This document shows positions 32,327 through 44,828 of a stretch of 64,000 bases of DNA, piece by piece. The position numbers and the translations under genes are program-made. The notes beneath the pieces were generated by a model, which searched no databases, had not been told where the DNA came from, and worked only from the letters and a program-made list of their open reading frames with translations. Origin of the DNA: Trueperella abortisuis. GTDB lineage: Bacteria > Actinomycetota > Actinomycetes > Actinomycetales > Actinomycetaceae. How positions within the stretch are numbered: position 1 is the first letter of the stretch; each line of letters opens with the position of its first letter. Location: NCBI RefSeq assembly GCF_030811095.1, contig NZ_JAUSQL010000001.1:1550001-1614000 (forward strand). Reading direction: 5' to 3'.

Positions 32327-33141
32327 GATGCTTTCCCCCCGAGCTGTTGAACGCTCGTCACCTCTGGGCCGAGGAATCGGCGAGCAAGTGTTTGGAATTC
32401 GTGGGCGTCGCCCGTGGATTGGAAGGTGTGGGTGGGCGCGGGCGCGCCGGGGTCGCGCAGCAGGGCGCGCGCGGTCAGCTCTCGGTAGACGTCGCGCGCG
32501 GTTTCTTGAGCGGATGAGACGAGCGCGACGTCCTCACCCATCACGTAGGAAATCACGCCGGCGAGGATCGGATAGTGCGTGCACCCCAGGATGAGGGTAT
32601 CCACGCCTGCCTCCTTGATCGGGGCCAGATACTCCTCGGCCACCGCGTGCAGCTCGGGGCCGGTGGTGATCCCGTTTTCCACGAACTCCACGAAGCGCGG
32701 TGCCGCCCCCGCCGTCAGCGTGATGCTGGGGACCACCGAGAAGGCATCCTCGTAGGCGCCGGATTCGATCGTGGCCCGCGTACCGATGATGCCGATGCGG
32801 TTGTTGATCGTCACGCGCACCGCCGCTCGCACCGCCGGATGGATCACCTCCACCACCGGGATGCCCTTGGATGCGGTGTAGCGTTCCCGCGCGTCGTGAA
32901 GCACCGCCGCCGACGCCGAATTGCACGCAATGACCAACATCTTCACGCCGGAGTCAACCAGCTTGTCCATGATTTCCAGCGCGAGCTCGCGCACCTGCGC
33001 GATTGGCCTCGGGCCGTAGGGATTGTTGGCGGTGTCACCAATATAGGTAATGGATTCGCCGGGCAACTGATCCATGATCGCACGCGCGACCGTCAGCCCG
33101 CCCACGCCAGAGTCGAACACACCTATGGGTGAATCGTCCAT
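32323..33141 (-). CDS. murI: Glutamate racemase
   Basis: MurI makes D-glutamate for peptidoglycan. The 272-residue protein shows [17 protein letters not shown], the two catalytic Cys in [12 protein letters not shown] (about residue 70) and LGCTHYPIL (about 183), and [12 protein letters not shown]. It lies 10 bp after the DUF2017 gene and overlaps the hydrolase gene, indicating a single operon from clpS through rdgB. Confidence 0.96.
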
Positions 33142-33151
33142 ACGGTGAATA

Positions 33152-33808
33152 CTACCGGCGCAGAGCCTTGTTCCTCACGGCGGTCACCAGTGAATCTTGC
33201 CACCAGGTGCTCATCGAGTACACGATCGCGAGGACGTCGTCCGTGCTTGGCTCGGCAGAACTCTCGCCATGCTGGAACGGGCGCACGCGCTCAGCGACAG
33301 CCTCGGAGGACTCCTCGTCGTTGATCCCGAGCCGCGCCGCGAGCACGATCCGCACGTCATTAAGCGCGCTCATCCACGCGGGCGCGTCCTCGTTGGCCAC
33401 GAGCACATCCCCGCCTCCACGCGCCGACTCCAAACCCTGGTAAACCGTCACCAGATTCTCGATCTTCTGCGAGGCCACCGACGTCTCCGTCAGCTCGCGT
33501 AGCGTGGCCGCCTCGTCCGGGTCCTCGCTCATGTCGGGCAACAGTTGCTCGACGACGACGTCGTACGGGGCTCTCGCCCGCGGCTCGCCCTCCGTTGCGA
33601 TCGCGTCGGCGATGTCCACGACGTCGGCCTCCAACTGCGCGAGTGGATCATCCGGGTCGACCGTCTGGGAGCGGCGCTCTGCCTCGTGGTCGACGTCCGA
33701 GCCGAGCAACCACACCGTATCCTTGACCAGCCCGGCGAGAACCCGCCGCTCGTCGTCGTCGATGTGGGCGAGGTAGCCGCCGCGCGCGATGCGGAACGCT
33801 GTCAGCAT
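33152..33808 (-). CDS. DUF2017 protein
   Basis: The 218-residue protein fits DUF2017, which nearly always follows clpS in actinobacteria: [30 protein letters not shown] at the start and [12 protein letters not shown] near residue 160. Its function is unknown; the constant linkage suggests a role with ClpS or the N-degron pathway. Its start overlaps the clpS stop by 7 bp. Confidence 0.88.
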
Positions 33809-34113
33809 TCGCCCTCCTCGATCGTGGCCCGCAGGCCGTAGGTGTGCATCGCCTGCGCGTCGCGTTCCATCTGCTCTCGCTGGCCAGTGGAGACAACGGC
33901 GCGGCCCGCGTTGTGAACCTCCATCATCTTCGCGTACGCCAGGCGCGTGGGCATGGAGAAGTAGCTTTCAAAAACCCATTGAACATATGTCATGAGGTTA
34001 ACGGGGTCATTATGCACCACGGTGCGCCAACCCGAAGCGGACTGTTGCGTGCTCGGGCGGGGGCTCACCATCGGCCTTTGTATTCTCTGACTCCCTATTT
34101 GCACGCTTTCCAT
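33802..34113 (-). CDS. clpS: ATP-dependent Clp protease adaptor ClpS
   Basis: ClpS delivers N-degron substrates to ClpC/ClpA-ClpP. The protein of about 103 residues shows WRTVVHNDPVNLMTYVQWVF, the substrate-pocket Asn-Asp-Pro, then FSMPTRLAYAKMMEVHNAGRAVVSTGQREQME. The start is uncertain: ATG at 34113 gives a 20-residue extra N-terminal tail, and ATG at 34071 is preceded by AAAGG and is a good alternative. Confidence 0.92.
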   Translation of the reverse strand: MESVQIGSQRIQRPMVSPRPSTQQSASGWRTVVHNDPVNLMTYVQWVFESYFSMPTRLAYAKMMEVHNAGRAVVSTGQREQMERDAQAMHTYGLRATIEEGEC

Positions 34114-34201
34114 AGTAGACCACCGCGCCTTTTTGGGTGAGTAAAACAGCAAGCCGAGCAAAGGTGCAGAAGATTTTTGCCAAGAGAGTTACCGTTAAGA
34201 C

Positions 34202-35554
34202 ATGACACCTAAGACTAGCACTGCCTTGCTCACAGACATGTACGAGTTGACCATGATCGAATCGGCGATGCAGTCCGGCACCGCCAACCGCCGCTCCGTC
34301 TTCGAAGTCTTCGGCCGTCGCCTTCCCGGCCACCGCCGATACGGCGTGGTCGCGGGCGTGGGGCGCGCGCTTGAGGCCGTGAAGAACTTCCGCTTCGGGC
34401 CCGAGGAGATCGACTACCTGCGCCAGGCCAACGTCGTCTCCGAGGACACCCTGGCCTATCTGGCCGACTTCACCTTCACCGGCGACATCTACGGGTACCG
34501 GGAAGGCGAGCTGTACTTCCCCGGCTCGCCCATCATGACAGTGGTGGGCACGTTCGCTGAGACGGTCCTGCTTGAAACCGTGTTACTGTCCATCCTCAAC
34601 TACGACTCGGCCGTGGCCACCGCCGCCTCCCGCATGACGATCGCGGCACACGACCGCCCCTGCCTCGACATGGGGGCGCGCCGCACCCACGAATGGTCCG
34701 CGGTCGCCGCCGCGCGCGCCGCCGTCATCGGAGGCTTCACCGGCACGTCGGACCTGGAGGCCGGGCGCCTGTACGGTATCCGGCCGATCGGCACCGCCGC
34801 CCACTCCTTCACCCTTCTGCACAACTCGGAGGAAGAGGCCTTCCGCGCACAGATCGCCACGATGGGCACCGACACCACGCTCCTGGTAGACACCTACAAC
34901 GTGGAAAAGGGCGTAGAGCTGGCCGTCCGCGTGGCCCGCGAGGCCGGCGGTGAGCTCGGCGCGGTCCGTATCGATTCGGGCGACCTCGTGGCTCAGGCTT
35001 TCAAGGTGCGCAAGCAGCTCGACGATCTGGGTGCGACGACGACGAAGATCACCGTCACCTCCGACCTCGACGAGTATGCGATCGCGGCCCTCAATGCGGC
35101 CCCGGTCGACTCCTACGGTGTGGGCACCCGCCTCGTCACCGGATCCGGCCAGCCCACCGCCCAGCTCGTCTACAAGCTCGTGGCGCGCGAGGGCGAGGAC
35201 GGCACCATGGAGGGCGTGGCGAAGAAGTCCGACTCGAAGACCTCGGTGGGCGGGCTGAAAGTGGCCGGGCGCACCCACGACGAGACGGGCCGCGCGCTCG
35301 AGGAGATCGTGGTCGCCGCAGACACCTGGGAGGCGGGCCTGGCCTACCTTGCCGAGCACGAGGCACGCCCGTTGCAGGTCAAGCTGGTCGAGGACGGGAC
35401 CGTTGACGAACGGTACATCGCCCGCAACTCCCTCGCCCACGCCGCCGAGCAGCACCGCAACTCCCGTGCGGCTCTGCCTTACCCGGCCTGGCGCCTGTCC
35501 GAGGGCGACCCGGCCCTCCCCACCGTCATGGTGGACATCACCGAGCGTGGATAG
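34202..35554 (+). CDS. pncB: Nicotinate phosphoribosyltransferase
   Basis: PncB converts nicotinate and PRPP to nicotinate mononucleotide in NAD salvage. The 450-residue enzyme begins TALLTDMYELTMIESAMQSG and has FEVFGRRLPGHRRYGVVAG, the catalytic His region DMGARRTHEWSAVAAARAA, and VRIDSGDLVAQAF. It is divergent from clpS, its usual actinobacterial neighbour. The helper enzyme NadE appears 6 kb away in this window. Confidence 0.96.
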   Translation: MTPKTSTALLTDMYELTMIESAMQSGTANRRSVFEVFGRRLPGHRRYGVVAGVGRALEAVKNFRFGPEEIDYLRQANVVSEDTLAYLADFTFTGDIYGYREGELYFPGSPIMTVVGTFAETVLLETVLLSILNYDSAVATAASRMTIAAHDRPCLDMGARRTHEWSAVAAARAAVIGGFTGTSDLEAGRLYGIRPIGTAAHSFTLLHNSEEEAFRAQIATMGTDTTLLVDTYNVEKGVELAVRVAREAGGELGAVRIDSGDLVAQAFKVRKQLDDLGATTTKITVTSDLDEYAIAALNAAPVDSYGVGTRLVTGSGQPTAQLVYKLVAREGEDGTMEGVAKKSDSKTSVGGLKVAGRTHDETGRALEEIVVAADTWEAGLAYLAEHEARPLQVKLVEDGTVDERYIARNSLAHAAEQHRNSRAALPYPAWRLSEGDPALPTVMVDITERG

Positions 35555-35610
35555 CACAGGGCTACGGCACGCAGTTCGCTGAGCCCATCAGGACGCGTCC
35601 AAGCACGCGA

Positions 35611-35635
35611 GGGCGCCGGATCGGATCCGGCGCCC
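35611..35635. terminator. Bidirectional terminator between pncB and the helicase gene
   Basis: gggcgccgg pairs with ccggcgccc around a 7-nt loop that is itself part of a near-perfect 25-nt palindrome, between convergent genes. Confidence 0.65.
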
Positions 35636-35639
35636 TGCG

Positions 35640-37403
35640 CTAGTTTCGGCCCACAAACCACCGCTGGATCTTCGCGATCCTAGCCTCGACCTCTTCGAGC
35701 GAGGCGCGAGCCACCTCCGGCCCGCCACAGACTCGGCGCAGGTCGGTGTGGATGAGCGCGTGCGGGCGGTGCGTCTTTGCGGCGTAGGCGGCCACGAGGC
35801 TAGAAAGTTGCTTGCGGGCCTCGCGCCGGCGTCGTGAATCCATGACGGTGCTGCGCGCCTCGCTGGCCTTGCCCGTGCTCTTCTTTTGCTCCGCCTGACG
35901 CTCACGCAACAAAGTGGCCACCTGGTCCGGCTCGAGCAGGCCGGGGATCCCGAGGAAGTCCGCCTCCTCGTCCGAGCCGACGGCGGCCCAGGATCCGAAA
36001 TCGTCCCCGTCGAAGACCACCCGGTCAAACGTGGCGTCTGCCGACAGCGCCGCGTATCCCACGCCCGCCAGCTCGTCGGAGGCCCTCTCGGCGCGGTTGG
36101 CCGCCTCCAGCAAGTCCTCCGGGTCGTCCGAGGGAACGTAGAGGGCGTGGTCGCGCTCCTTTTCCAGCTCGCCCGCGAGGGCCAGCAGGTGCGGCACCGA
36201 GGGGAGGAACACCGACGCCGTCTCCCCGCGCGATCGCGAGCGCACAAAACGGCCGATCACCTGGGCGAAGAAGAGCGGTGTGGAGGTTGACGTGGCGTAC
36301 ACTCCCACCGCCAGGCGCGGCACGTCCACGCCCTCCGACACCATGCGCACGGCCACCATCCAGCGCTGCGTGCCACCGGAGAATTCGGCGATGCGATCCG
36401 AGGCGCGGTCGTCGTCGGAGAGGACCACCGTGGGATCCTCGCCCGTGATCTGCGCGAGGATGTCGGCGTAGGCGCGGGCCGTCTGGTGGTCCGTCGCGAT
36501 GACGAGGCCGCCCGCATCGGGCATACCTTGGCGGACGACCGTCAGCCGATCATCCGCGGCGCCGAGCACCGCTTTGATCCAGTCTCCGGACGGGTTGAGC
36601 GCCGTCTGCCAGGCCTGGGCTTCCATGTCCTTCGTCATGGCCTCGCCTAGCTGGGCGTTCATCACTTCGCCGTGTTTGGTCTGCCAGCGCATGCTTCCCG
36701 TGTATGACAGGAACATGACCGGGCGCACCACATGATCGGCCAGCGCCTCGGCGTAGCCGTATGTGTAGTCCGCCTTCGAGCGGGGCACGCCGTCGGCGTC
36801 GGGTTCGTAGGTGACGAACGGGATCGCCGCCGAATCGGAGCGGAAGGGCGTACCGGTGAGCGACAGGCGCTGCTTCGCCGGCTCGAAGGCCACACGGATG
36901 CCGTCTCCCCAGCTCAACGCGTCGCCGCCGTGGTGGATCTCGTCAAAGATGACGAGGGTGGAACGTGCCGAGGTGCGGTGGCGGTGGAAAAGCGGGGAAC
37001 GGGCCACCTGCGCGTAGGTGACGCAGGCACCGTTGAAGGAGGCTCCTAGGTTGCCTTGCGAGTTCGAGAAGTCCGGGTCCAGCTTGAGGCCGACGCGCCC
37101 GGCGGCATCCGCCCACTGATACTTCAGGTGCTCCGTGGGGCATACCACCGTCACCTCGGTGACGATCCTGCGGGCCATGAGCTCGGTGGCCACCCGCAGA
37201 GCGAAGGTGGTCTTACCCGCGCCCGGGGTCGCTACCGCGAGGAAATCCCGCGGGGTATCCGCGAGGTACTGTTCGAGGGCCGCCGCCTGCCAGGCGCGCA
37301 GAGACCCGGCCGTTCCCCACGCAGCACGTTGCGGGTAGACGGGAGGGAGGTTCTGGGCTGCCGATACTGAAACAGAGCGGGGATGGGGTGAGCGGGCGCT
37401 CAC
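35640..37403 (-). CDS. DEAD/DEAH-box (SF2) helicase
   Basis: The 587-residue protein begins at a GTG that overlaps the DUF3039 stop (GTGA). It has LRAWQAAALEQYL, Walker A ATPGAGKTTFAL, Walker B VIFDEIHHGGD, SLTGTPFRSD (motif III), and motif VI QVIGRFVRSRSRGE. It resembles XPB/type III-restriction-like helicases found with DUF3039 in actinobacteria. The last 110 residues are helical and charged. A role in DNA repair is inferred from family, not shown. Confidence 0.9.
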   Translation of the reverse strand: MSARSPHPRSVSVSAAQNLPPVYPQRAAWGTAGSLRAWQAAALEQYLADTPRDFLAVATPGAGKTTFALRVATELMARRIVTEVTVVCPTEHLKYQWADAAGRVGLKLDPDFSNSQGNLGASFNGACVTYAQVARSPLFHRHRTSARSTLVIFDEIHHGGDALSWGDGIRVAFEPAKQRLSLTGTPFRSDSAAIPFVTYEPDADGVPRSKADYTYGYAEALADHVVRPVMFLSYTGSMRWQTKHGEVMNAQLGEAMTKDMEAQAWQTALNPSGDWIKAVLGAADDRLTVVRQGMPDAGGLVIATDHQTARAYADILAQITGEDPTVVLSDDDRASDRIAEFSGGTQRWMVAVRMVSEGVDVPRLAVGVYATSTSTPLFFAQVIGRFVRSRSRGETASVFLPSVPHLLALAGELEKERDHALYVPSDDPEDLLEAANRAERASDELAGVGYAALSADATFDRVVFDGDDFGSWAAVGSDEEADFLGIPGLLEPDQVATLLRERQAEQKKSTGKASEARSTVMDSRRRREARKQLSSLVAAYAAKTHRPHALIHTDLRRVCGGPEVARASLEEVEARIAKIQRWFVGRN

Positions 37404-37747
37404 TTGCCGTCTCCACCCGGCGGGTTCGGGCCGAACGGCCACGCTCCCCCGCCGTTGCCAAGGTTTTGGTAGATCGCCTTACACGTGGGGCAGATCGGGT
37501 ACCGATCCGGGTTACGCACCGGGGTCCACACCTTCCCGCATAACGCCACCACAGGCCCGCCTTCGATCGCGGACTGCGTGTAGCGATCCTTGCGCACGTA
37601 GTGAGCGTAGCGATCCTCATCGCCTGGCTCACGCTCTTCGCGCGTGCGCTCCAGGGTTGCGGTAGTTGATTCCGGCGCAAGCGAGGGCGCGTCCGGCTGG
37701 GCCGGCCCGTCCGGTGCCTGGGGATCAGAATGAGGATCGATAGACAT
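37400..37747 (-). CDS. DUF3039 protein (zinc-ribbon-like)
   Basis: The 115-residue protein starts at the ATG at 37747, preceded by GGAGGC. After a Pro-rich N-terminus it has HYVRKDRYTQSAIEGGPVVALCGKVW and YPICPTCKAIYQNL, giving three Cys that could form a metal site. DUF3039 members are typically encoded just before this helicase. Function unknown; partnership with the helicase is inferred. Confidence 0.9.
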   Translation of the reverse strand: MSIDPHSDPQAPDGPAQPDAPSLAPESTTATLERTREEREPGDEDRYAHYVRKDRYTQSAIEGGPVVALCGKVWTPVRNPDRYPICPTCKAIYQNLGNGGGAWPFGPNPPGGDGK

Positions 37748-37826
37748 GCCTCCAGTGTATTGCTCCCCTCCGACATTTTCGTGCCAAGGTCGGGTGGGAG
37801 ATACCACGTCGGCTCGGCGCACCGTG

Positions 37827-37832
37827 TAGAAT
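37827..37832 (+). promoter_or_regulatory. Putative -10 element for the ABC-F transcript
   Basis: TAGAAT with a preceding TG lies about 16 bp before the first leader ATG. No good -35 was seen. It would start the mRNA near 37839 and leave a leader of about 125 nt. Confidence 0.4.
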
Positions 37833-37848
37833 CGAGTCGGATTTGCCG

Positions 37849-37872
37849 ATGGCGTTCTTGGTGTGTTCTTGA
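37849..37872 (+). CDS. Possible leader peptide upstream of the ABC-F gene
   Basis: A 7-codon open frame, ATG to TGA, encodes MAFLVCS. It lies between the putative -10 and the hairpin that covers the ABC-F ribosome-binding site, as antibiotic-sensing leader peptides do. A weak GGA sits 8 nt upstream. A 4-codon frame (MRSA) follows at 37874-37888. Translation is not shown. Confidence 0.35.
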   Translation: MAFLVCS

Positions 37873-37901
37873 TATGAGGAGTGCGTAGTTCCGGTGTCGA
37901 T

Positions 37902-37962
37902 GTGATCTCCACTCAGCGCTGCTGAGACGTGACCATAGTTTCTGCTACGTCCCGGAGATCAC
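37902..37962 (+). promoter_or_regulatory. RBS-sequestering hairpin in the ABC-F leader
   Basis: gtgatctcc (37902-37910) pairs perfectly with ggagatcac (37954-37962), which contains the GGAG ribosome-binding site of the ABC-F gene. Inside it, ctcagc/gctgag (37912-37926) forms a tight hairpin and gacgt/acgtc (37926-37951) a second one. The structure would hide the start site until something opens it. Confidence 0.65.
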
Positions 37963-37963
37963 C

Positions 37964-39658
37964 ATGCCCGCAATTATCCTCGATGCTGTTTCCTTTTCTT
38001 ACGGGTCCCGACCCGTCCTTGACCACGTCAGCCTGTGTGTCTCTAGCGGTGAGCGCGCCTTCTTGGTCGGCCCGAATGGGGTCGGCAAGTCCACGCTCGT
38101 GAGAATCCTCGCCGGAGAATTGACTCCGGATTCAGGGCGAGTTGTATCTGGCGTCGTTCCTCAGCGACTTCCCGATCCAGAATCCTTCACCGGCAGCGTC
38201 GCCCAATTCCTCGACTCGGTTCTGATGCCGCTGAAAAAGCTGCTCGCACGTTTCGAGCAGCTTGCGCAGGCTATCGCTTCTGGTCGGGACGATTGTTCTT
38301 CGGATTATGACCATGTTCTTGCCCAGTTGAATTCTTTGGACGTGTGGTCATTGGATGGGCGGGTGAACCACGCATTAGACGGGCTGGGCCTGGCGGAGTT
38401 CACAGAGTCTGGAAGCGACCGGCTGTTGATGACACTCTCGCCGGGCCAGCGCGCGCGGTTGAAGCTCGCCGCACTTCTAATAGTCCGACCCGAGGTGCTA
38501 GTCCTCGATGAACCGACCAACCATCTGGATAGGGAGGCGATCAGTTTCCTGACGGACGCTGTGAAGAATTGGGAAGGGCCAGTGCTAGCGACCAGTCATG
38601 ACAGAGCCTTTATCGAAGATACCGCGACCGTGATTTACGACTTGGACATCTCCGTGTGGCAGGAGCTCGCGAAAAATGACGGCGAGGAAATGGTGGGCGT
38701 ATACCGCAACGCGGGTAACTACACGGACTACCTCGTTGCAAAGGCGACCGCCCGCGAGAAACACCAGCAGATACATGCGGCACAGCAGGCTGAAAAGCGG
38801 GGGCTGCGCGAACATCGGCATGAGAGCATGAAGATTGCTCGTGGCGGGGTTCGATTGGAAATGGCTGTTGGCAAAGAAAAGAAATTCTTCATGGATCGGG
38901 CGGCAGCGACGTCAGTGACAAGGACGCGTCACGATGGTGTTCGATTAGCACGCCTCGCTCAGCGAGAACTTCGAAAACCCCGCCACTATGATCTTCAGTT
39001 CCCTGTTCTTGAGTCTGGCCCCGAATCTGGTCTGGCGGTGTCAGCGCGCGCCGCGGCCGTGGCGGATCGGCTTGCGCCGGTCACATTCGATCTGTGTCGA
39101 GGCGAGCATCTCCTCGTGACGGGGGCGAATGGTGCAGGAAAATCAACGCTTCTGAACTGGATTACGGCGGGCAGTCCTCCAGCGGAGACGGTATGCAGTG
39201 GCACCATCACACGCGACGGCCCCATCGGTGCGGTGCCACAACGACTACCCGCCGAGTCAGACCCGGGATTCGGGGAGAGAACATGGACCGCCGGGATTGG
39301 CGAGGCCGGGAAAGGAATCCTTCATCCTTCCATGTGGAGCGTGAGTATCCCTCACCTGTCTGCGGGTAATCAACGCCGCGCCCAACTATCGATCGCGCTG
39401 GCCGCCCGCCCAGCCGTTCTGGTTATCGACGAACCGACCAATTACCTCGACCTCGAGACAATGAACGCGCTCGAAGAGGCCCTTCGAACCTGGCGAGGAA
39501 CTTTGATCATCGCCAGTCACGACCGTTGGCTGATCGATCACTGGCACGGTCATCGTCTTCACCTCGAACCCGCCGCCCGTCACATAGATGCCCCGATTGG
39601 CGTAACACCGCCGGGCATGAAAAAGCGCCCCTCACAAGGGGCGCCCTTTCGGAGCTGA
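37964..39658 (+). CDS. ABC-F family protein of antibiotic-resistance type
   Basis: The 564-residue protein has two ABC domains and no membrane segments. Domain 1: Walker A GPNGVGKST (36-44), LSPGQRARL, VLVLDEPTNHLD. Domain 2: GANGAGKST, LSAGNQRRAQL (signature altered from LSGGQ), VLVIDEPTNYLD. The charged linker between them (about 255-345) would reach into the ribosome. ABC-F resistance proteins dislodge macrolides, lincosamides, streptogramins or pleuromutilins. Composition is less GC-rich than the neighbours and the 3' end runs over the hup terminator, suggesting acquisition. Housekeeping ABC-F proteins are the alternative. Confidence 0.85.
   Translation: MPAIILDAVSFSYGSRPVLDHVSLCVSSGERAFLVGPNGVGKSTLVRILAGELTPDSGRVVSGVVPQRLPDPESFTGSVAQFLDSVLMPLKKLLARFEQLAQAIASGRDDCSSDYDHVLAQLNSLDVWSLDGRVNHALDGLGLAEFTESGSDRLLMTLSPGQRARLKLAALLIVRPEVLVLDEPTNHLDREAISFLTDAVKNWEGPVLATSHDRAFIEDTATVIYDLDISVWQELAKNDGEEMVGVYRNAGNYTDYLVAKATAREKHQQIHAAQQAEKRGLREHRHESMKIARGGVRLEMAVGKEKKFFMDRAAATSVTRTRHDGVRLARLAQRELRKPRHYDLQFPVLESGPESGLAVSARAAAVADRLAPVTFDLCRGEHLLVTGANGAGKSTLLNWITAGSPPAETVCSGTITRDGPIGAVPQRLPAESDPGFGERTWTAGIGEAGKGILHPSMWSVSIPHLSAGNQRRAQLSIALAARPAVLVIDEPTNYLDLETMNALEEALRTWRGTLIIASHDRWLIDHWHGHRLHLEPAARHIDAPIGVTPPGMKKRPSQGAPFRS
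39625..39644 (-). terminator. hup terminator lying inside the end of the ABC-F gene
   Basis: GCGCCCCT / AGGGGCGC with a 4-nt loop is followed on the minus strand by TTTTTC. It terminates hup while encoding part of the last 12 residues of the ABC-F protein. Confidence 0.8.
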
Positions 39659-39660
39659 GA

Positions 39661-39942
39661 CTACTTGGCAACAGCCTTCTTCAGGGTGGAGCCGGCCGAG
39701 ATCTTCACGCCGAAGCCGGCGGGGATCTCGATCTCCTCGCCCGTGCGCGGGTTGCGGCCCTTGCGGGCGGCGCGCTCGGTGCGCTCAACGGACATGAGGC
39801 CCGTGATCTTGACGGCTTCGCCAGCGGCGAGGGAGTCAACGAGGACGGTCTGGAGAGCGGAAATGGCCTTGTCAGCATCGGTCTTGGTCAGACCGGACTC
39901 TTCGGCAATCTTGGCAATAAGCTCGGTGCGGTTGAGGGACAT
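39661..39942 (-). CDS. hup: DNA-binding protein HU
   Basis: The 93-residue HU protein has MSLNRTELIAKIAEESGLTK, VKITGLMSVERTERAARKGRNPRTGEEIEIPA (the DNA-binding arm with the Pro tip) and a short basic end. It lacks the long Lys/Ala-rich tail of many actinobacterial HU homologues. It is convergent with the ABC-F gene and divided from the exchanger gene by about 190 bp, which contain its promoter. Confidence 0.96.
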   Translation of the reverse strand: MSLNRTELIAKIAEESGLTKTDADKAISALQTVLVDSLAAGEAVKITGLMSVERTERAARKGRNPRTGEEIEIPAGFGVKISAGSTLKKAVAK

Positions 39943-40136
39943 ATATCTACCTCTCAGTTTGTTCCTTCGATTCGGCTCGGATTGAACCGCTAGCAGTCAA
40001 TTTAGCTGAAATACCGCCGCAAACACCAACTCTGCCGGGCTTTTGTACGAAAATGGACGCGCTTTTCACTCTCAGATGATCTCAACATTCACATGTACCC
40101 CATTTGCCACAGCACGCGGCGCTCACCGCGGCGCCG

Positions 40137-41705
40137 CTAGAAGGCGAGGATGACATGGACAAGGAGGATCTTCGCGATCATGGACAGCGCGAACACGGAG
40201 GCGTAACCAGCCTCGATTCGCTCGTCGGCCTCCTTCGAGGACGCGAAGGCGAGGATCGCAGGCTGGCCGAGCACGCCCGCCATTACGCCGGCGGTGCGCT
40301 GCGCGCTCACGCCCAGGACACGCCCCATCGCGAGCGTGACAAGCAACACGACGACGGCGATCACGCTACCCATCGCGAGCGCCTTCAGACCGACCGGGGA
40401 GAAAGCCGTCCGCGCAAAGGCCGGGCCCGAGGCGATGCCGACCGCGGCCAGGAACAGGAGCAAGCCGAGCTGGCGGATGGTTTGGTTCGCCGCGCCAGGC
40501 AGCTGCCACACGAGGGGCCCCGTGCGGCGCAGGTAGCCCAGGATCATGCCCACGATGAGCGGGCCGGCAGCGGCTCCGAGGCTGAAGGATCCCCCGTTAG
40601 ACAGGCTGATCTTCACCATCCCCAGAAGAAGGCCGAGCACCATGCCGAGGCCGAGCCCGACGGCGTCGACGGTGGAGACCGTACGCTCGGAGTTGCCAAA
40701 GAACTCCTCGATCGCGTCGTACTCGCGGCGCGGGAAGGCCACCATCACGCGGTCGCCGATCTCGAGGCGCTCTTGGCTGCCGGCGAGTAGCTCGGCGTCG
40801 CCGCGAAGGATGCGGGTGGCGACGGCGCCGAAGCGACCGGGCAGGTTGAGCTCGGCCACGGTGGAGCCGGCAAGTTCCTTGTGCGAGACGGTAAAGGAGC
40901 GGAAGTCGACGCGCGATCGGTCGTCGGCGAGGTGCTCGGGCAGCACGTGGCCGATGGCGTCGATCGCCGTGGTAACGTCGTTTTCCCTGCCTACGACGAC
41001 GATCTGATCCTCTGGCTCGAGCTCCTCACCCGGGCTGATGACCCGCGTCTTACCGTTACGCATGAAGTAGGAGACGAGGATATTCTGCTCGAGGTAGCCG
41101 GGGACGGCCCGGAGCGAAACGTCGCGTTCGACGACGGCGGTGTTCGCCACGATCGACTGGCCCGCAACGGAGGGCGTGTCGTTGCCTCCAGGCCACCTGC
41201 GCGAGACGACCATGGAGACGATGATGATGCCGAAGAAGACGCCCATCGGGTAACCCAGTGAGTAGCCGACCCCCGGCTCGGCCGATCCCAGCGCCGTGTT
41301 CGCAGCTGCGAGCGCGGGGGTACTGGTCAGGGCGCCGGCGAAGAGGCCGACGGAGAGCTCGGAGCTCAACCCGAACAGCGGGGCCAGCCCGATCGTGGCG
41401 ATCGCCCCTACGATGACGGCCACGACCGTGCCCAGCATGAGCTTGTAGTGGCGCGCCAGGTCGGCGAAGAAGGTCTGGCCGGCTGACAGGCCCACCATGT
41501 AGACGAAGAGGGCCAAGCCGAGGTTTTGCAGCAGGCCGAGCTCGGCGCCAAGTTCGGGGACGATATTCCCGATGAAGAGGCCCACGAAGAGGGCGGCCGC
41601 CGCGCCGAAGCGAAGCTTGCCGAAGGGAATGATGCCGAGCACTCCTCCGAGCGCGACGACGAGGAAGACTGTCATGAGCGGCGAGGCGCTCAGCAGATTT
41701 GCCAC
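40137..41705 (-). CDS. AspT/YidE-type aspartate:alanine exchanger family transporter
   Basis: The 522-residue membrane protein has about ten helices in two blocks (residues 10-170 and 350-520) around two cytoplasmic TrkA-C (RCK_C) domains, seen as GEELEPEDQIVVVGRENDV and RLEIGDRVMVAFPRREYD. The AspT signature GLFAGALTSTPALAAA and VMAGVLGQPAILAFASS appear once in each block. Family members exchange dicarboxylic amino acids or other anions; the substrate is unknown. It lies upstream of hup on the same strand. Confidence 0.88.
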   Translation of the reverse strand: MANLLSASPLMTVFLVVALGGVLGIIPFGKLRFGAAAALFVGLFIGNIVPELGAELGLLQNLGLALFVYMVGLSAGQTFFADLARHYKLMLGTVVAVIVGAIATIGLAPLFGLSSELSVGLFAGALTSTPALAAANTALGSAEPGVGYSLGYPMGVFFGIIIVSMVVSRRWPGGNDTPSVAGQSIVANTAVVERDVSLRAVPGYLEQNILVSYFMRNGKTRVISPGEELEPEDQIVVVGRENDVTTAIDAIGHVLPEHLADDRSRVDFRSFTVSHKELAGSTVAELNLPGRFGAVATRILRGDAELLAGSQERLEIGDRVMVAFPRREYDAIEEFFGNSERTVSTVDAVGLGLGMVLGLLLGMVKISLSNGGSFSLGAAAGPLIVGMILGYLRRTGPLVWQLPGAANQTIRQLGLLLFLAAVGIASGPAFARTAFSPVGLKALAMGSVIAVVVLLVTLAMGRVLGVSAQRTAGVMAGVLGQPAILAFASSKEADERIEAGYASVFALSMIAKILLVHVILAF

Positions 41706-41793
41706 AACAAACCTTTCATTGACGAGTGTTGACCGCTACAATTCTAGCCGTTTGGAACCATTCAAGCTTGGCCGGGCTACGCCGACCGGGAAG

Positions 41794-42618
41794 CTAGCGC
41801 CACCAGGTGTCGTCGGGCTCGACGGGGGTGGTGCGCTTGTGGCGCGCCCGCACCCACTTTCCTTCGAGGTTGGCCGCCGCCTCGGAGGAGATCTGCTTGC
41901 CCTCCAGATAGTCGTCGATCTCGTCGTAGGTGATCCCGAGCTCGTCCTCGTCGGTGCGCAACGGGCGCCCGTCGAGCAGGTCGGCTGTCGCCACCTTCGT
42001 CCACAGCTGCTCCGGCGAACCCAGGTGTTCCAGCAGTGAGCGGACCTGGCGCTTGTTCAGGCCGGCCAGCGGCAGGATGTCCGCGCCACCGTCGCCGAAC
42101 TTGGTAAAGAAGCCGGTGGTGTTCTCGGCCGCGTGGTCGGTACCGATCACGAGCAGGCCCAGGTCGCCGGCGATCGCGTATTGGGCGATCATGCGCTGGC
42201 GGGCCTTGACGTTGCCCTTGTTAAAGTCCGAGATGTCAACGCCCATCGCTTCGCGGTAGGCGCGCTCGACGCCGTCGGTGGCCTCCTTAATGTTGATCGT
42301 GACCTGGTGGTCGGCGCCCACCCAGGCCATCGCGGCTGCGGCGTCGGCCTCGTCGGCCTGAACGCCGTAGGGCAGGCGCACCGCGTAGAAGGTTGCCTCG
42401 TGGCCCTCGGCCCGTAGCTTGTCGACGGCGAGCTGGGCCAGCCGCCCGGCGAGCGTGGAATCCACCCCGCCCGAGATCCCGAGCACGAAGCCCTTCGTAT
42501 GCGTGGCTAGCATGTAGTCGCACAGGAACTGGACGCGTCGCCTCACCTCCTGGGCAGGGTCAATGACGGGCCGCACGCCCGTAGTCTCGATAATGTGCTG
42601 CTGCAAAGGATGGAACAT
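41794..42618 (-). CDS. nadE: Ammonia-dependent NAD+ synthetase
   Basis: NadE amidates nicotinate adenine dinucleotide to NAD+. The 274-residue protein has the N-type ATP pyrophosphatase P-loop [59 protein letters not shown] and LNKRQVR. It lacks the amidase domain of the glutamine-dependent form. With pncB it completes part of NAD salvage. Confidence 0.97.
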
Positions 42619-42699
42619 AGGCCTAGTCTAGCCACCTCCCCACCTCGCCTTCCATGGCCCTCCGCCTTCGAGAATGCCCCCGCAGGCGCGGCGAAGGCC

Positions 42700-42730
42700 C
42701 GGAGCCCACGCGCTCGATGCGTGGGCTCCG
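42700..42730 (-). terminator. Terminator after the 5'-nucleotidase gene
   Basis: A perfect 12-bp stem CGGAGCCCACGC / GCGTGGGCTCCG with a 7-nt loop lies 29 bp past the stop codon. Confidence 0.65.
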
Positions 42731-42758
42731 GTCCTGGCGCACCCTTAGGCGGCGCGCC

Positions 42759-44828
42759 TTAGGCGCAACGACGCCGTAGTGCCACTCCGCCGACGAGGAG
42801 CGCTCCGGCCACCATCGCGATGACCTGCACCGAGGCGCCGGTCATTGGTAGCTTCTGGCGCGTGTTCTGCTGCTGGTCCGGCGCGGGCTGGGAGGCATCG
42901 GGCCGCTCGCCCCCGGAAGGGGCTTTGTCCGAGCCACCCGGCTCCTGGCCGGGAGTGGGTCCGGGCTCGCCGCCCTCGCCGTCCTCGCCGCCCGGGTTGA
43001 TCCCCGGCGCAGAGGCGGAGGAGGTGCCAACCGTCCAGTTCAGCGTGAAGATCTTCGCCGGATCGATCACGCCGTGCTCCTCACCCCAGGCGATCATGAG
43101 TTCGCGGATGGCCTGCTGCTCGTCGTAGACCACCTTGGCCGTAGACACGTGCGGGTAGAACGAGCCGCCGGACTGGCGGTAGTTGTTGACGGCGAGGATG
43201 AAGCGGTCCTCGTCGCCAACGGCCCGCCCGTCGGGGTAGGACAGCCCCTCGATGCGCTCGCCCACGGGCTTGGAGATGTTGATGTGGTAGTTCACCCCGG
43301 CAAGCATGTCGTAGCTGTAGTCCGGGATGCCGCGCGTTTGCCCCTCGTAGAGAGCGTTAATGACCGTGGACCAGTCCTCGATCGTGGCGCCCTCGGGCTG
43401 TTGTGCGTAGTAGCGGGCCGACCACTCGAGGTAGTCCTTGATCTGCGCACCCGTCATTTCCACGCCAAGGAGCGTGTTATCGAAGGTGTAGAGTCCGGCC
43501 ATGTCGGCGATCGTCACGTCGCCCTTGGTGAAGCGGGCGCTGGCGGAGAACGGCGAGGCCTGGGAGAGCACGGGGATGCCGGCATACTGCGTACCCTCGA
43601 GCGCCTTGGCCACCGTTTCTCTTTGAACAAGGTTGATGAAATCCACGATCGGGGTGTCCTCGTAGCGGGCGCGCTCGGCCGTCATGTCGTCGGTGGCCTG
43701 AGCGACCACGGTGGAAACCCAGGCAACCGTCTTTGAATGCCAGGGTTCGACCGCTTCGCGCACGCCGGCGTCCTCGCGGCCGAGGTAGTTCGAGGCGTAG
43801 AGCGGGCTCGCCGACGCCTTGCAGGTTTCGGTGTTGACCACGGTGGGTTCCTCACCGTCAAACGCGATCGGCACCTCGACCTTCGACACGGAGCGGGCGT
43901 GGTAGCCAGGCTGGGTGACGAGCACGCTCTTGCCCGCCGCGTTCGTCAGGAATGTCTCAGCGTTGTCGGTCACGTGCGAGTGGCCCGCGACCACCACATC
44001 CACGCCCTCCGTCTGGGTGGCGATCGAAGCGGCCACGTTCTCCGTCAGGTCGGCCGGGTTCCACGCGTACCCTTTCGCGTCCATACCCGTGTGCGCGAGA
44101 ACGACGACGACGTCCGCGCCCGCCTCACGCACCGTCGGCACCCACGCCTTGACCGCCTCGACGGCGTCCTGGAACTGAAGGTCCTGCGTGGAATTGCGGT
44201 CCCAGATGCGCACGCCCGGCGTCACCACGCCGATCACGCCCACCTTGACATCTTTGCCGGCCACCTTCTTGTCGATCATGGTGTAGGGCGTGAGGTAGGG
44301 CTTGCCGCTGGCCTTGTCGATGACGTTCGCGCCGAGCAGCGGCATATTGAGGGAGTCGCGGTACTGGTTGAGGTCGCCCTTGACCCCGTCCTTGTCCAGG
44401 TGACCGTAATTAAACTCGTGGTTGCCGACCACCCCGGCGTCGTAGCCGAGGTAGTTGAACACGGAGGCGATCGGGTCAACCGAATCGGCGGTGCGATCGG
44501 CGTGGTAGACGATGTTCAGCGGGCTACCCTGGTTGGCGTCTCCGTTGTCGAGTAGCACCACGGAGTCCTTGCCCTTCTCGGCGCGCACGTCGGCGATCGC
44601 GGGCGCGAGCAGCTCAAGTCCGCGCGTGCGGTTGCGCTGATCAGCCTTGGCATCCGTGAACGGTTTGCCTGTGAAGTAGTCGTAGTTGAGCGCCGTGCCG
44701 TGTAGGTCGGTGGTGGCGAGGATGGTCAGCGTCTGCTCCTCACAGCCCGTGGTCTCCGTCGCGCTGGCGGCGGCGGGGCTGAGGAAGAGCAGACTCGCTG
44801 CAAGGATAGATATTGCGGTTTTCTTCAT
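42759..44828 (-). CDS. Cell-wall-anchored 5'-nucleotidase/metallophosphatase
   Basis: The 689-residue secreted protein starts at the ATG at 44828 (AAGGA upstream), with a signal peptide to about residue 23. The metallophosphatase domain has TDLHGTALNYDY (41 on), DNGDANQGSP, VVGNHEFNYGH, VLAHTGMD and VVAGHSHVTD; the C-terminal nucleotidase domain has PIVDFINLVQRE and NNYRQSGGSFYP. A Pro/Gly linker leads to LPMTG, a hydrophobic helix and RRRCA. Related streptococcal wall nucleotidases make adenosine; 2',3'-cyclic phosphodiesterase activity is the alternative. Confidence 0.92.
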   Translation of the reverse strand: MKKTAISILAASLLFLSPAAASATETTGCEEQTLTILATTDLHGTALNYDYFTGKPFTDAKADQRNRTRGLELLAPAIADVRAEKGKDSVVLLDNGDANQGSPLNIVYHADRTADSVDPIASVFNYLGYDAGVVGNHEFNYGHLDKDGVKGDLNQYRDSLNMPLLGANVIDKASGKPYLTPYTMIDKKVAGKDVKVGVIGVVTPGVRIWDRNSTQDLQFQDAVEAVKAWVPTVREAGADVVVVLAHTGMDAKGYAWNPADLTENVAASIATQTEGVDVVVAGHSHVTDNAETFLTNAAGKSVLVTQPGYHARSVSKVEVPIAFDGEEPTVVNTETCKASASPLYASNYLGREDAGVREAVEPWHSKTVAWVSTVVAQATDDMTAERARYEDTPIVDFINLVQRETVAKALEGTQYAGIPVLSQASPFSASARFTKGDVTIADMAGLYTFDNTLLGVEMTGAQIKDYLEWSARYYAQQPEGATIEDWSTVINALYEGQTRGIPDYSYDMLAGVNYHINISKPVGERIEGLSYPDGRAVGDEDRFILAVNNYRQSGGSFYPHVSTAKVVYDEQQAIRELMIAWGEEHGVIDPAKIFTLNWTVGTSSASAPGINPGGEDGEGGEPGPTPGQEPGGSDKAPSGGERPDASQPAPDQQQNTRQKLPMTGASVQVIAMVAGALLVGGVALRRRCA

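What the first reader, a model, noticed from the sequence alone, without database searches (positions are those of the whole stretch)
37827..37966. Possible translational attenuator controlling an ABC-F resistance-type gene
The leader has a candidate -10, a 7-codon ORF (MAFLVCS) and a hairpin whose 3' arm is the ABC-F ribosome-binding site (9 perfect pairs), plus internal alternative hairpins. This is the layout of antibiotic-inducible erm and ABC-F leaders, where a drug-stalled ribosome on the leader peptide frees the downstream start site. The leader peptide is not one I recognise.
Basis: partly seen in the sequence, partly recalled or inferred. Interest (0 to 1): 0.75.

Follow-up and report, generated by a model that had tools for sequence, protein, structure and literature searches.

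The report
Three-codon antibiotic sensor before ABC-F gene
A short RNA switch in front of a probable antibiotic-resistance gene appears to sense stuck ribosomes on a tiny three-codon reading frame (not the seven-codon one first suspected) and then to uncover the gene's start site; the same switch is conserved in front of the same gene in several families of actinobacteria.

Summary
The 9-bp stem hiding the ABC-F ribosome-binding site is real (37902-37910 with 37954-37962) and conserved, so the leader is very likely a ribosome-mediated translational attenuator. The proposed leader peptide MAFLVCS is not the sensor: it is not conserved, and a ribosome on it does not reach the stem. In 51 aligned leaders (48 distinct) the conserved feature is a three-codon ORF, start-X-Y-stop, at 37894-37905 (GTG TCG ATG TGA), behind its own GAGGAG, with its stop codon inside the stem. 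Of 48, 48 keep an ATG/GTG start and 47 a stop; 11 use TAA, 9 of them with a compensating change in the opposite arm. All 51 stand directly before this ABC-F, and the carriers tested form one clade. More distant ABC-Fs (36 of 46 from the window's family) often have an exactly three-codon ORF right after a -10 box: 30 of 46, 0.22 expected, against 1 of 253 control genes; class-wide only 3 of 26. Peptides vary, length does not, as expected for sensing start-codon arrest. Three-codon uORFs are known for VmlR, CplR and Are5sc, so this is a new variant of a known kind. Drug induction is inferred, not shown.

The parts
37827..37832 (+). Probable -10 hexamer TAGAAT of the leader promoter (start of transcription inferred near 37839-37841)
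   Evidence: Sequence; -10-like hexamer (>=5/6) in the 25-85 nt before the uORF in 25 of 48 leaders vs 7 expected. No two-box promoter match in the window.
37849..37872 (+).
   Evidence: Present but not conserved; a footprint on it does not reach the stem.
37876..37881 (+). Shine-Dalgarno (GAGGAG) of the three-codon uORF
   Evidence: a purine-rich SD-like stretch lies at the same place in most relatives, judged by eye.
37894..37905 (+). Three-codon uORF GTG TCG ATG TGA (Met-Ser-Met-stop), the probable sensor
   Evidence: Start ATG/GTG in 48 of 48 and stop TGA/TAA in 47 of 48 distinct leaders; no gaps between them in A2.
37902..37910 (+). P1 5' arm, anti-Shine-Dalgarno GTGATCTCC, containing the uORF stop codon
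   Evidence: 96.1% of cells paired over 48 leaders, changes on both sides at 4 of 9 pairs.
37912..37926 (+). P2 hairpin CTCAGC-GCT-GCTGAG
   Evidence: 99.3% of cells paired, changes on both sides at 3 of 6 pairs; absent in one weak match, L119.
37927..37950 (+). P3 hairpin, arms 37927-37930 and 37947-37950; less conserved
   Evidence: 69.4% of cells paired; not in the RNAalifold consensus.
37954..37962 (+). P1 3' arm GGAGATCAC = Shine-Dalgarno region of the ABC-F gene
   Evidence: Exact reverse complement of 37902-37910; SD opening cost 11.5 kcal/mol free, 3.8 with a footprint on the uORF start.
37964..39658 (+). ABC-F ATPase gene (564 aa), antibiotic-resistance-like, regulated gene
   Evidence: ABC_tran domain in 2 stretches; best NCBIfam models NF000355 and NF000171 (TlrC/CarA/OleB/SrmB), both below cut-off; each of 51 leaders precedes a homologue.

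Best explanation
The leader is a translational attenuator. Without drug, ribosomes load at GAGGAG, translate the three-codon uORF GTG-TCG-ATG and leave at TGA; the mRNA then folds into P1 and hides the ABC-F Shine-Dalgarno. A drug that blocks the peptidyl transferase centre (most likely lincosamide, pleuromutilin or streptogramin A; perhaps some macrolides) holds the ribosome on the start codon or the next two. Its footprint covers most or all of the 5' arm of P1, P1 cannot form, P2 stays as a spacer, and the ABC-F start site is exposed. The ABC-F protein would then clear drug from ribosomes and close the loop. Shown here: the anatomy, conservation, covariation, gene linkage and predicted opening. 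Inferred: translation of the uORF, drug-dependent stalling, the drug classes, and the resistance activity of the protein.
For: P1 and P2 are conserved with covariation: 35 cells changed on both sides vs 10.7 in shuffles, 0 of 500 as high; versions slid by 1-3 columns pair 31-41% of cells vs 91.6%. At the pair under the second base of the stop codon, 36 of 48 leaders have G-C and 9 have A-U, the latter turning TGA into TAA, so stem and stop are both kept. uORF start 48 of 48, stop 47 of 48, fixed distance. The leader model hits 31 of 213 genomes of the window's family, 13 of 242 of the Corynebacterium genus and 5 of 147 of the Cutibacterium family. All 51 aligned leaders are followed, in frame from residue 1, by this ABC-F. 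A footprint on the uORF start lowers the SD opening cost from 8.7 to 3.6 kcal/mol on average, by >=2 in 45 of 48; a footprint 30 nt upstream does not. No terminator found at 37700-38100. The three-codon uORFs of VmlR (PMC9226507), CplR (PMC10201436) and Are5sc (PMC12421871) are needed for induction or stall at the start codon (passages seen).
Against: No expression, ribosome-profiling or drug data were available. The uORF SD spacing (12 nt from GAGGAG to GTG) is long. The mean unpaired probability of the SD rises only from 0.04 to 0.21-0.28 under a footprint, and in the window from 0.001 to 0.10, 0.38 and 0.08 at codons 1-3, so release may be partial. Some covariation measures do not exceed shuffles: further pair types in both alignments, and in A1 the number of pairs with a double change (72 of 500 shuffles as high). 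Of 11 TAA leaders, 2 lack the compensating base. One relative (L080 = L032) has lost the stop codon and one P1 pair but keeps the gene. In 8 of 51 loci the ABC-F frame is short. A2 was fitted to the model, which leans pair counts towards it.
Confidence: 0.78

Rival explanations
1. One reading: the 7-codon ORF MAFLVCS is the leader peptide and stalls with macrolides, as in erm leaders.
For: The ORF lies about 10 nt after the inferred transcription start, near where many related genes have leaderless-type uORFs.
Against: Not conserved beyond the window's species; a footprint on any of its 7 codons leaves SD accessibility at 0.001; its -10-to-ATG gap of 16 nt is not the leaderless type.
Confidence: 0.06
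2. Same three-codon uORF, but arrest is peptide- or codon-specific (macrolide-type stall at codon 3 or at the stop codon) and not start-codon arrest.
For: The third codon encodes Leu or Met in 36 of 48 leaders; the nearest named models include the TlrC/OleB group, listed as macrolide ABC-Fs in PMC6723617; PMC10201436 states that the identity of uORF(MIN) matters for efficient vmlR induction.
Against: The G of codon 3 pairs in P1, so the stem can explain part of the bias; 12 of 48 have Ile, Lys, Arg, Phe or Ser there; related ABC-Fs have quite different tripeptides.
Confidence: 0.22
3. Control is mainly transcriptional (terminator/antiterminator), with P1-P3 part of it.
For: lmrC and other ABC-F leaders use terminators (PMC8546547, PMC12421871, passages seen).
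Against: No terminator-like site found at 37700-38100; the conserved stem pairs with the SD itself.
Confidence: 0.08
4. P1 only sets a constant low translation level; the uORF is not a sensor.
For: No induction data exist here.
Against: Does not explain why start, stop and length of the uORF are kept while codon 2 drifts, nor the three-codon excess in related genes.
Confidence: 0.06

Closest known systems
vmlR leader of Bacillus subtilis, uORF(MIN) (PMC9226507, passages seen)
   Same: Three-codon uORF with its own SD before an ABC-F gene; its SD and start codon are needed for expression; variants MDN and MDK work at least as well, MRK less efficiently.
   Different: vmlR also uses an intrinsic terminator and RNA polymerase pausing; no terminator seen here. 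Here the uORF stop lies inside the anti-SD stem. No sequence relation was tested.
cplR leader of Clostridioides difficile, uORF MR[I/M] (PMC10201436, passages seen)
   Same: Three-codon uORF; the SD is hidden in a stem, and translational attenuation suffices for repression when termination is disabled.
   Different: The cplR stem is also a terminator with a polyU stretch; here no terminator-like site was found.
are5sc leader of Streptomyces coelicolor, uORF MLV (PMC12421871, passages seen)
   Same: Actinobacterial ABC-F with a three-codon uORF; toeprints (template with the TTG start changed to ATG by the authors) show stalling at the start codon with lincosamides, tiamulin and pristinamycin IIA, not erythromycin.
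   Different: Proposed terminator/antiterminator switch; ARE5 protein, whereas this protein scores nearest general ABC-F and TlrC/OleB models, below cut-off.
ermC/ermB/msrD leaders (search listings only, e.g. PMC10314930; otherwise recalled)
   Same: Drug-stalled ribosome on a leader ORF opens a downstream resistance gene.
   Different: Longer leader peptides with a specific stalling sequence (recalled); here three codons with variable residues.

Membership tests
Ribosome-mediated translational attenuator | uORF upstream of the regulated gene, conserved start and stop | tested here: met
   Start 48 of 48, stop 47 of 48 distinct leaders.
Ribosome-mediated translational attenuator | Main SD hidden in a conserved stem that a ribosome on the uORF would disrupt | tested here: met
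   P1 96.1% of cells paired; opening cost falls by >=2 kcal/mol in 45 of 48, though unpaired probability rises only modestly.
Ribosome-mediated translational attenuator | Drug-dependent ribosome stalling on the uORF and induction | not testable with these tools
   Needs toeprinting or reporters.
Transcription attenuator (terminator type) | Intrinsic terminator in the leader | tested here: not met
   0 terminator-like sites at 37700-38100 by a simple pattern scan.
Described RNA family (Rfam 15) | Match to a covariance model | tested here: not met
   Only tRNAs in the window at gathering score; no match up to E 5 at 37780-38020.
ARE ABC-F of the TlrC/CarA/OleB/SrmB group (NF000171) | Score above the curated cut-off | tested here: not met
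   258.7 bits vs cut-off 800, though aligned over 5-535.
ABC-F ATPases | Two ABC domains in one chain | tested here: met
   PF00005 with 2 stretches; Uup, EttA, YheS and YbiT among solved relatives.
ABC-F ATPases conferring resistance (ARE) | Protects ribosomes from a drug | not testable with these tools
   No activity data; ARE status inferred from the leader and relatives.

The most novel reading that the evidence does not exclude
Actinobacterial ABC-F genes use a length-coded, largely sequence-indifferent antibiotic sensor: a uORF of exactly three codons, in Actinomycetaceae mostly leaderless (the mRNA begins at or just before the start codon), in the window's clade given its own SD, whose stop overlaps the anti-SD stem. 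It reports any drug that freezes the ribosome at its first peptide bonds, and its presence marks unclassified ABC-Fs as drug-responsive.
Probability: 0.45. Interest if true: 0.66.

Novelty: new variant of a known kind. Interest (0 to 1): 0.52.

Why it matters
It turns a single-sequence guess into a defined, conserved RNA switch with a testable sensor of only three codons. If confirmed it gives a natural system for asking which antibiotics arrest ribosomes at the start codon, and why three codons recur in ABC-F leaders of Bacilli, Clostridia and actinobacteria. It also offers a way to recognise which unclassified actinobacterial ABC-Fs (several groups are predicted AREs in PMC6723617, passages seen) answer to drugs. 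Genera met in medicine and veterinary practice (Corynebacterium, Cutibacterium, Actinotignum, Trueperella) carry it.

Tried and rejected
MAFLVCS as sensor: rejected. Two other tiny ORFs of the window leader, VFLI* and MRSA*: no counterpart in the relatives' lists. Transcription terminator: none found. Known RNA family: none. Whole-leader folding energy as evidence: not significant (z -0.90). Spread on plasmids: no DNA match in 72,556 records; at E <= 1e-60 the protein finds 26 records, all Streptomyces, the 20 listed at about 36% identity; three upstream regions read there (L184-L186) have no leaderless three-codon ORF. Leader outside the ABC-F context: none among the 51 aligned; a class-wide sample of 394 genomes gave only the window's own. 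Generalisation to all actinobacteria: class-wide distant ABC-Fs have the leaderless three-codon ORF in 3 of 26 (0.02 expected), far rarer than in the family/order set. Pairing of the short ORF's region with the gene's start region is suggestive, not general: of 36 loci (30 three-codon, 6 of other lengths) 13 are below z -1.64, median -1.28. The near-invariant TTCCG before the uORF start was not explained. The protein's structure was not predicted, so the length of its drug-reaching loop was not compared.

Rows dropped before counts: 36 of 73 loci held matched the hairpin pattern; 8 identical leaders were dropped before A1 and L069, which the pattern missed, was added by hand. Of 54 loci given, four (L008, L009, L010, L055) were chosen as non-members and none matched; L056 and L058-L072 were not given to it again, several being the same genomes. 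G163's weak hit (E 8e-4) was not fetched. In one search, 59 upstream regions outside the leader clade were reduced to 46 representatives by shared 8-mers; 12 loci whose match starts inside the gene (L152-L163) and 5 masked, truncated or unrelated loci (L005, L006, L018, L046, L073) were left out. In one search a subset of 23 + 15 + 12 proteins was used, with group labels that I assigned. In one search, 26 new loci of the 40 listed places were used. In one search several loci were printed on the wrong strand; one search put that right.

Full report
WHAT WAS CHECKED. The stretch 37827-37966 was read directly. The -10-like TAGAAT, the MAFLVCS ORF and the 9-bp stem between 37902-37910 and 37954-37962 are all there. 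A stem arm of at least 9 Watson-Crick pairs against the ABC-F Shine-Dalgarno appears in 9 of 2000 dinucleotide shuffles of the leader. The folding energy of the whole leader is not unusual (z -0.90; 35 of 200 shuffles as good). No terminator-like and no two-box sigma-70-like site was found at 37700-38100. No Rfam family matches.

THE GENE. 37964-39658 encodes a 564-aa ABC-F ATPase. Its best NCBIfam models are ribosomal-protection-like ABC-F (264.6 bits, cut-off 380) and the TlrC/CarA/OleB/SrmB producer group (258.7, cut-off 800), so it is resistance-like but below both curated cut-offs. Among the 120 best of 824 relatives, source names where given are ABC-F or ABC-type ATP-binding proteins, e.g. 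in Auritidibacter ignavus (75%), Corynebacterium (69-72%), Arcanobacterium (61-67%) and Trueperella pyogenes (58-59%). A 98%-identical copy lies in a MAG labelled Trueperella sp.. G+C of the 1-kb windows over the gene is 57.5-60% (62% at its 3' end), against 62-70% elsewhere in 33000-43999; with the patchy distribution this suggests horizontal acquisition (inference).

THE LEADER IS CONSERVED. Upstream sequences of homologues align over the whole leader: 29 distinct sequences in A1. A covariance model R1 found the leader in 31 of 213 genomes of the window's family (one of them weak, E 8e-4), 13 of 242 of the Corynebacterium genus (one weak, E 1e-4) and 5 of 147 of the Cutibacterium family. In the Brevibacterium and Auritidibacter families it found only the genomes already known, 1 of 60 and 1 of 149. 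A class-wide sample of 394 gave only the window's own genome. Fifty-one matches (48 distinct) were aligned (A2). All 51 are followed in frame, from residue 1, by a homologue of this ABC-F; in 8 of 51 that frame is short (22-237 aa); for nearly all others 501 codons were held and all were open. A protein tree of 50 ABC-Fs (midpoint-rooted) puts the 23 proteins with this leader in one clade (local support 0.991); its nearest neighbours, 8 proteins, carry leaderless three-codon ORFs.

THE SENSOR IS A THREE-CODON ORF. In 48 distinct leaders the ORF start-X-Y-stop at window 37894-37905 has ATG or GTG as start in 48 and TGA or TAA as stop in 47. The exception, G129 (L032/L080), reads CGA. The tripeptide varies: MTL 15, MVL 5, MNM 3, MLI 3 and 18 other readings. 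A -10-like hexamer with at least 5 of 6 matches lies in the 25-85 nt before the uORF in 25 of 48 (7 expected), so the transcript should contain the uORF.

STRUCTURE. In A2, P1 (9 pairs) is paired in 96.1% of cells, P2 (6 pairs) in 99.3%, P3 (4 pairs) in 69.4%. Thirty-five cells are changed on both sides, against 10.7 in shuffles (0 of 500 as high); slid versions pair 31-41%. The number of pairs with a double change (8; 22 of 500 shuffles as high) and of further pair types (252 of 500) are weaker or not raised, so the covariation rests on a few pairs. The telling one lies under the second base of the stop codon: G-C in 36, A-U in 9, G-U in 1, unpaired in 2 of 48. Each of the 9 compensated changes turns TGA into TAA; 11 leaders have TAA in all, so 2 lack the partner. 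A1, aligned without the model, gives a similar picture (23 double-changed cells vs 8.7, 0 of 500; but 6 pairs with a double change, 72 of 500 as high).

MECHANICS. Masking a ribosome footprint (15 nt before to 14 nt after the first P-site base; an assumption) on the uORF start lowers the cost of opening the SD from 8.7 to 3.6 kcal/mol on average over 48 leaders, by at least 2 in 45; a footprint 30 nt upstream leaves it at 9.1. For the window the values are 11.5, 3.8 and 13.3. By unpaired probability the rise is modest: 0.04 free, 0.21 to 0.28 at codons 1 to 3, and in the window 0.001 to 0.10, 0.38 and 0.08. A footprint on any of the 7 MAFLVCS codons leaves the window's SD at 0.001. The likely cycle is that free ribosomes finish three codons and P1 re-forms, whereas a ribosome held by a PTC drug on codons 1-3 keeps P1 open. 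[quoted passage not shown] passages of each were seen. Against pure sequence indifference, the VmlR variant MRK induces less well than MIN, MDN and MDK, and PMC10201436 calls the identity of uORF(MIN) crucial for efficient induction.

A WIDER PATTERN. Outside this leader clade, ABC-F homologues (36 representatives from the window's family, 10 from other families of the order) often have an ORF of exactly three codons whose start lies 4-10 nt after a TANNNT box, i.e. a leaderless arrangement. This holds for 30 of 46 (0.22 expected from shuffles); each other length from 1 to 12 codons gives 0-4. The rule was noticed in these data, so it was tested on controls: 1 of 253 mechanically chosen genes of two genomes, and 3 of 26 class-wide distant ABC-Fs with 0.02 expected. 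The 46 are not phylogenetically independent. The peptides are diverse (MIA, MLA, MLV, MAA, MRM, MRL, MFL, MWN, MTK, MSI and more), so length more than sequence is kept. Pairing between the short ORF's region and the gene's start region is better than shuffles at z < -1.64 in 13 of 36, so a P1-like stem is likely in some and unproven in others.

NOVELTY. Three-codon uORFs before ABC-F genes are known. I did not find this leader, or leaderless three-codon uORFs before ABC-Fs, in the listings of the searches (open-licence PMC texts only; most listed papers were not opened; supplementary files were not readable, and Data S4 of PMC12421871 may list related uORFs). It is therefore filed as a new variant of a known kind.

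Noticed in passing
window 37889-37893 and columns 19-23 of A1: The pentamer TTCCG directly before the uORF start is nearly invariant (24, 28, 28, 27 and 28 of 29) and lengthens the SD-start spacing; no role found.
   Followed up: partly
L032/L080 (G129) leader: The only one of 48 distinct leaders without the uORF stop (CGA) also has a broken P1 pair; the ABC-F frame downstream is open over the stretch held.
   Followed up: no
L082:410-503 (G005): A second copy of the leader about 1.1 kb upstream of the one before the full ABC-F stands before a 22-codon remnant of the same ABC-F start.
   Followed up: partly
L081, L100, L102, L103, L113, L118, L123: Leader recognisable but the following ABC-F frame is short (27-237 aa): decayed copies, or sequencing errors.
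   Followed up: partly
L008-L014, L048-L055, L124-L150: Leaderless-type exactly three-codon ORFs before more distant ABC-F genes, 30 of 46 representatives.
   Followed up: yes
window 37500-39500: G+C of the ABC-F region 57.5-60% against 62-70% around it, suggesting horizontal acquisition.
   Followed up: no
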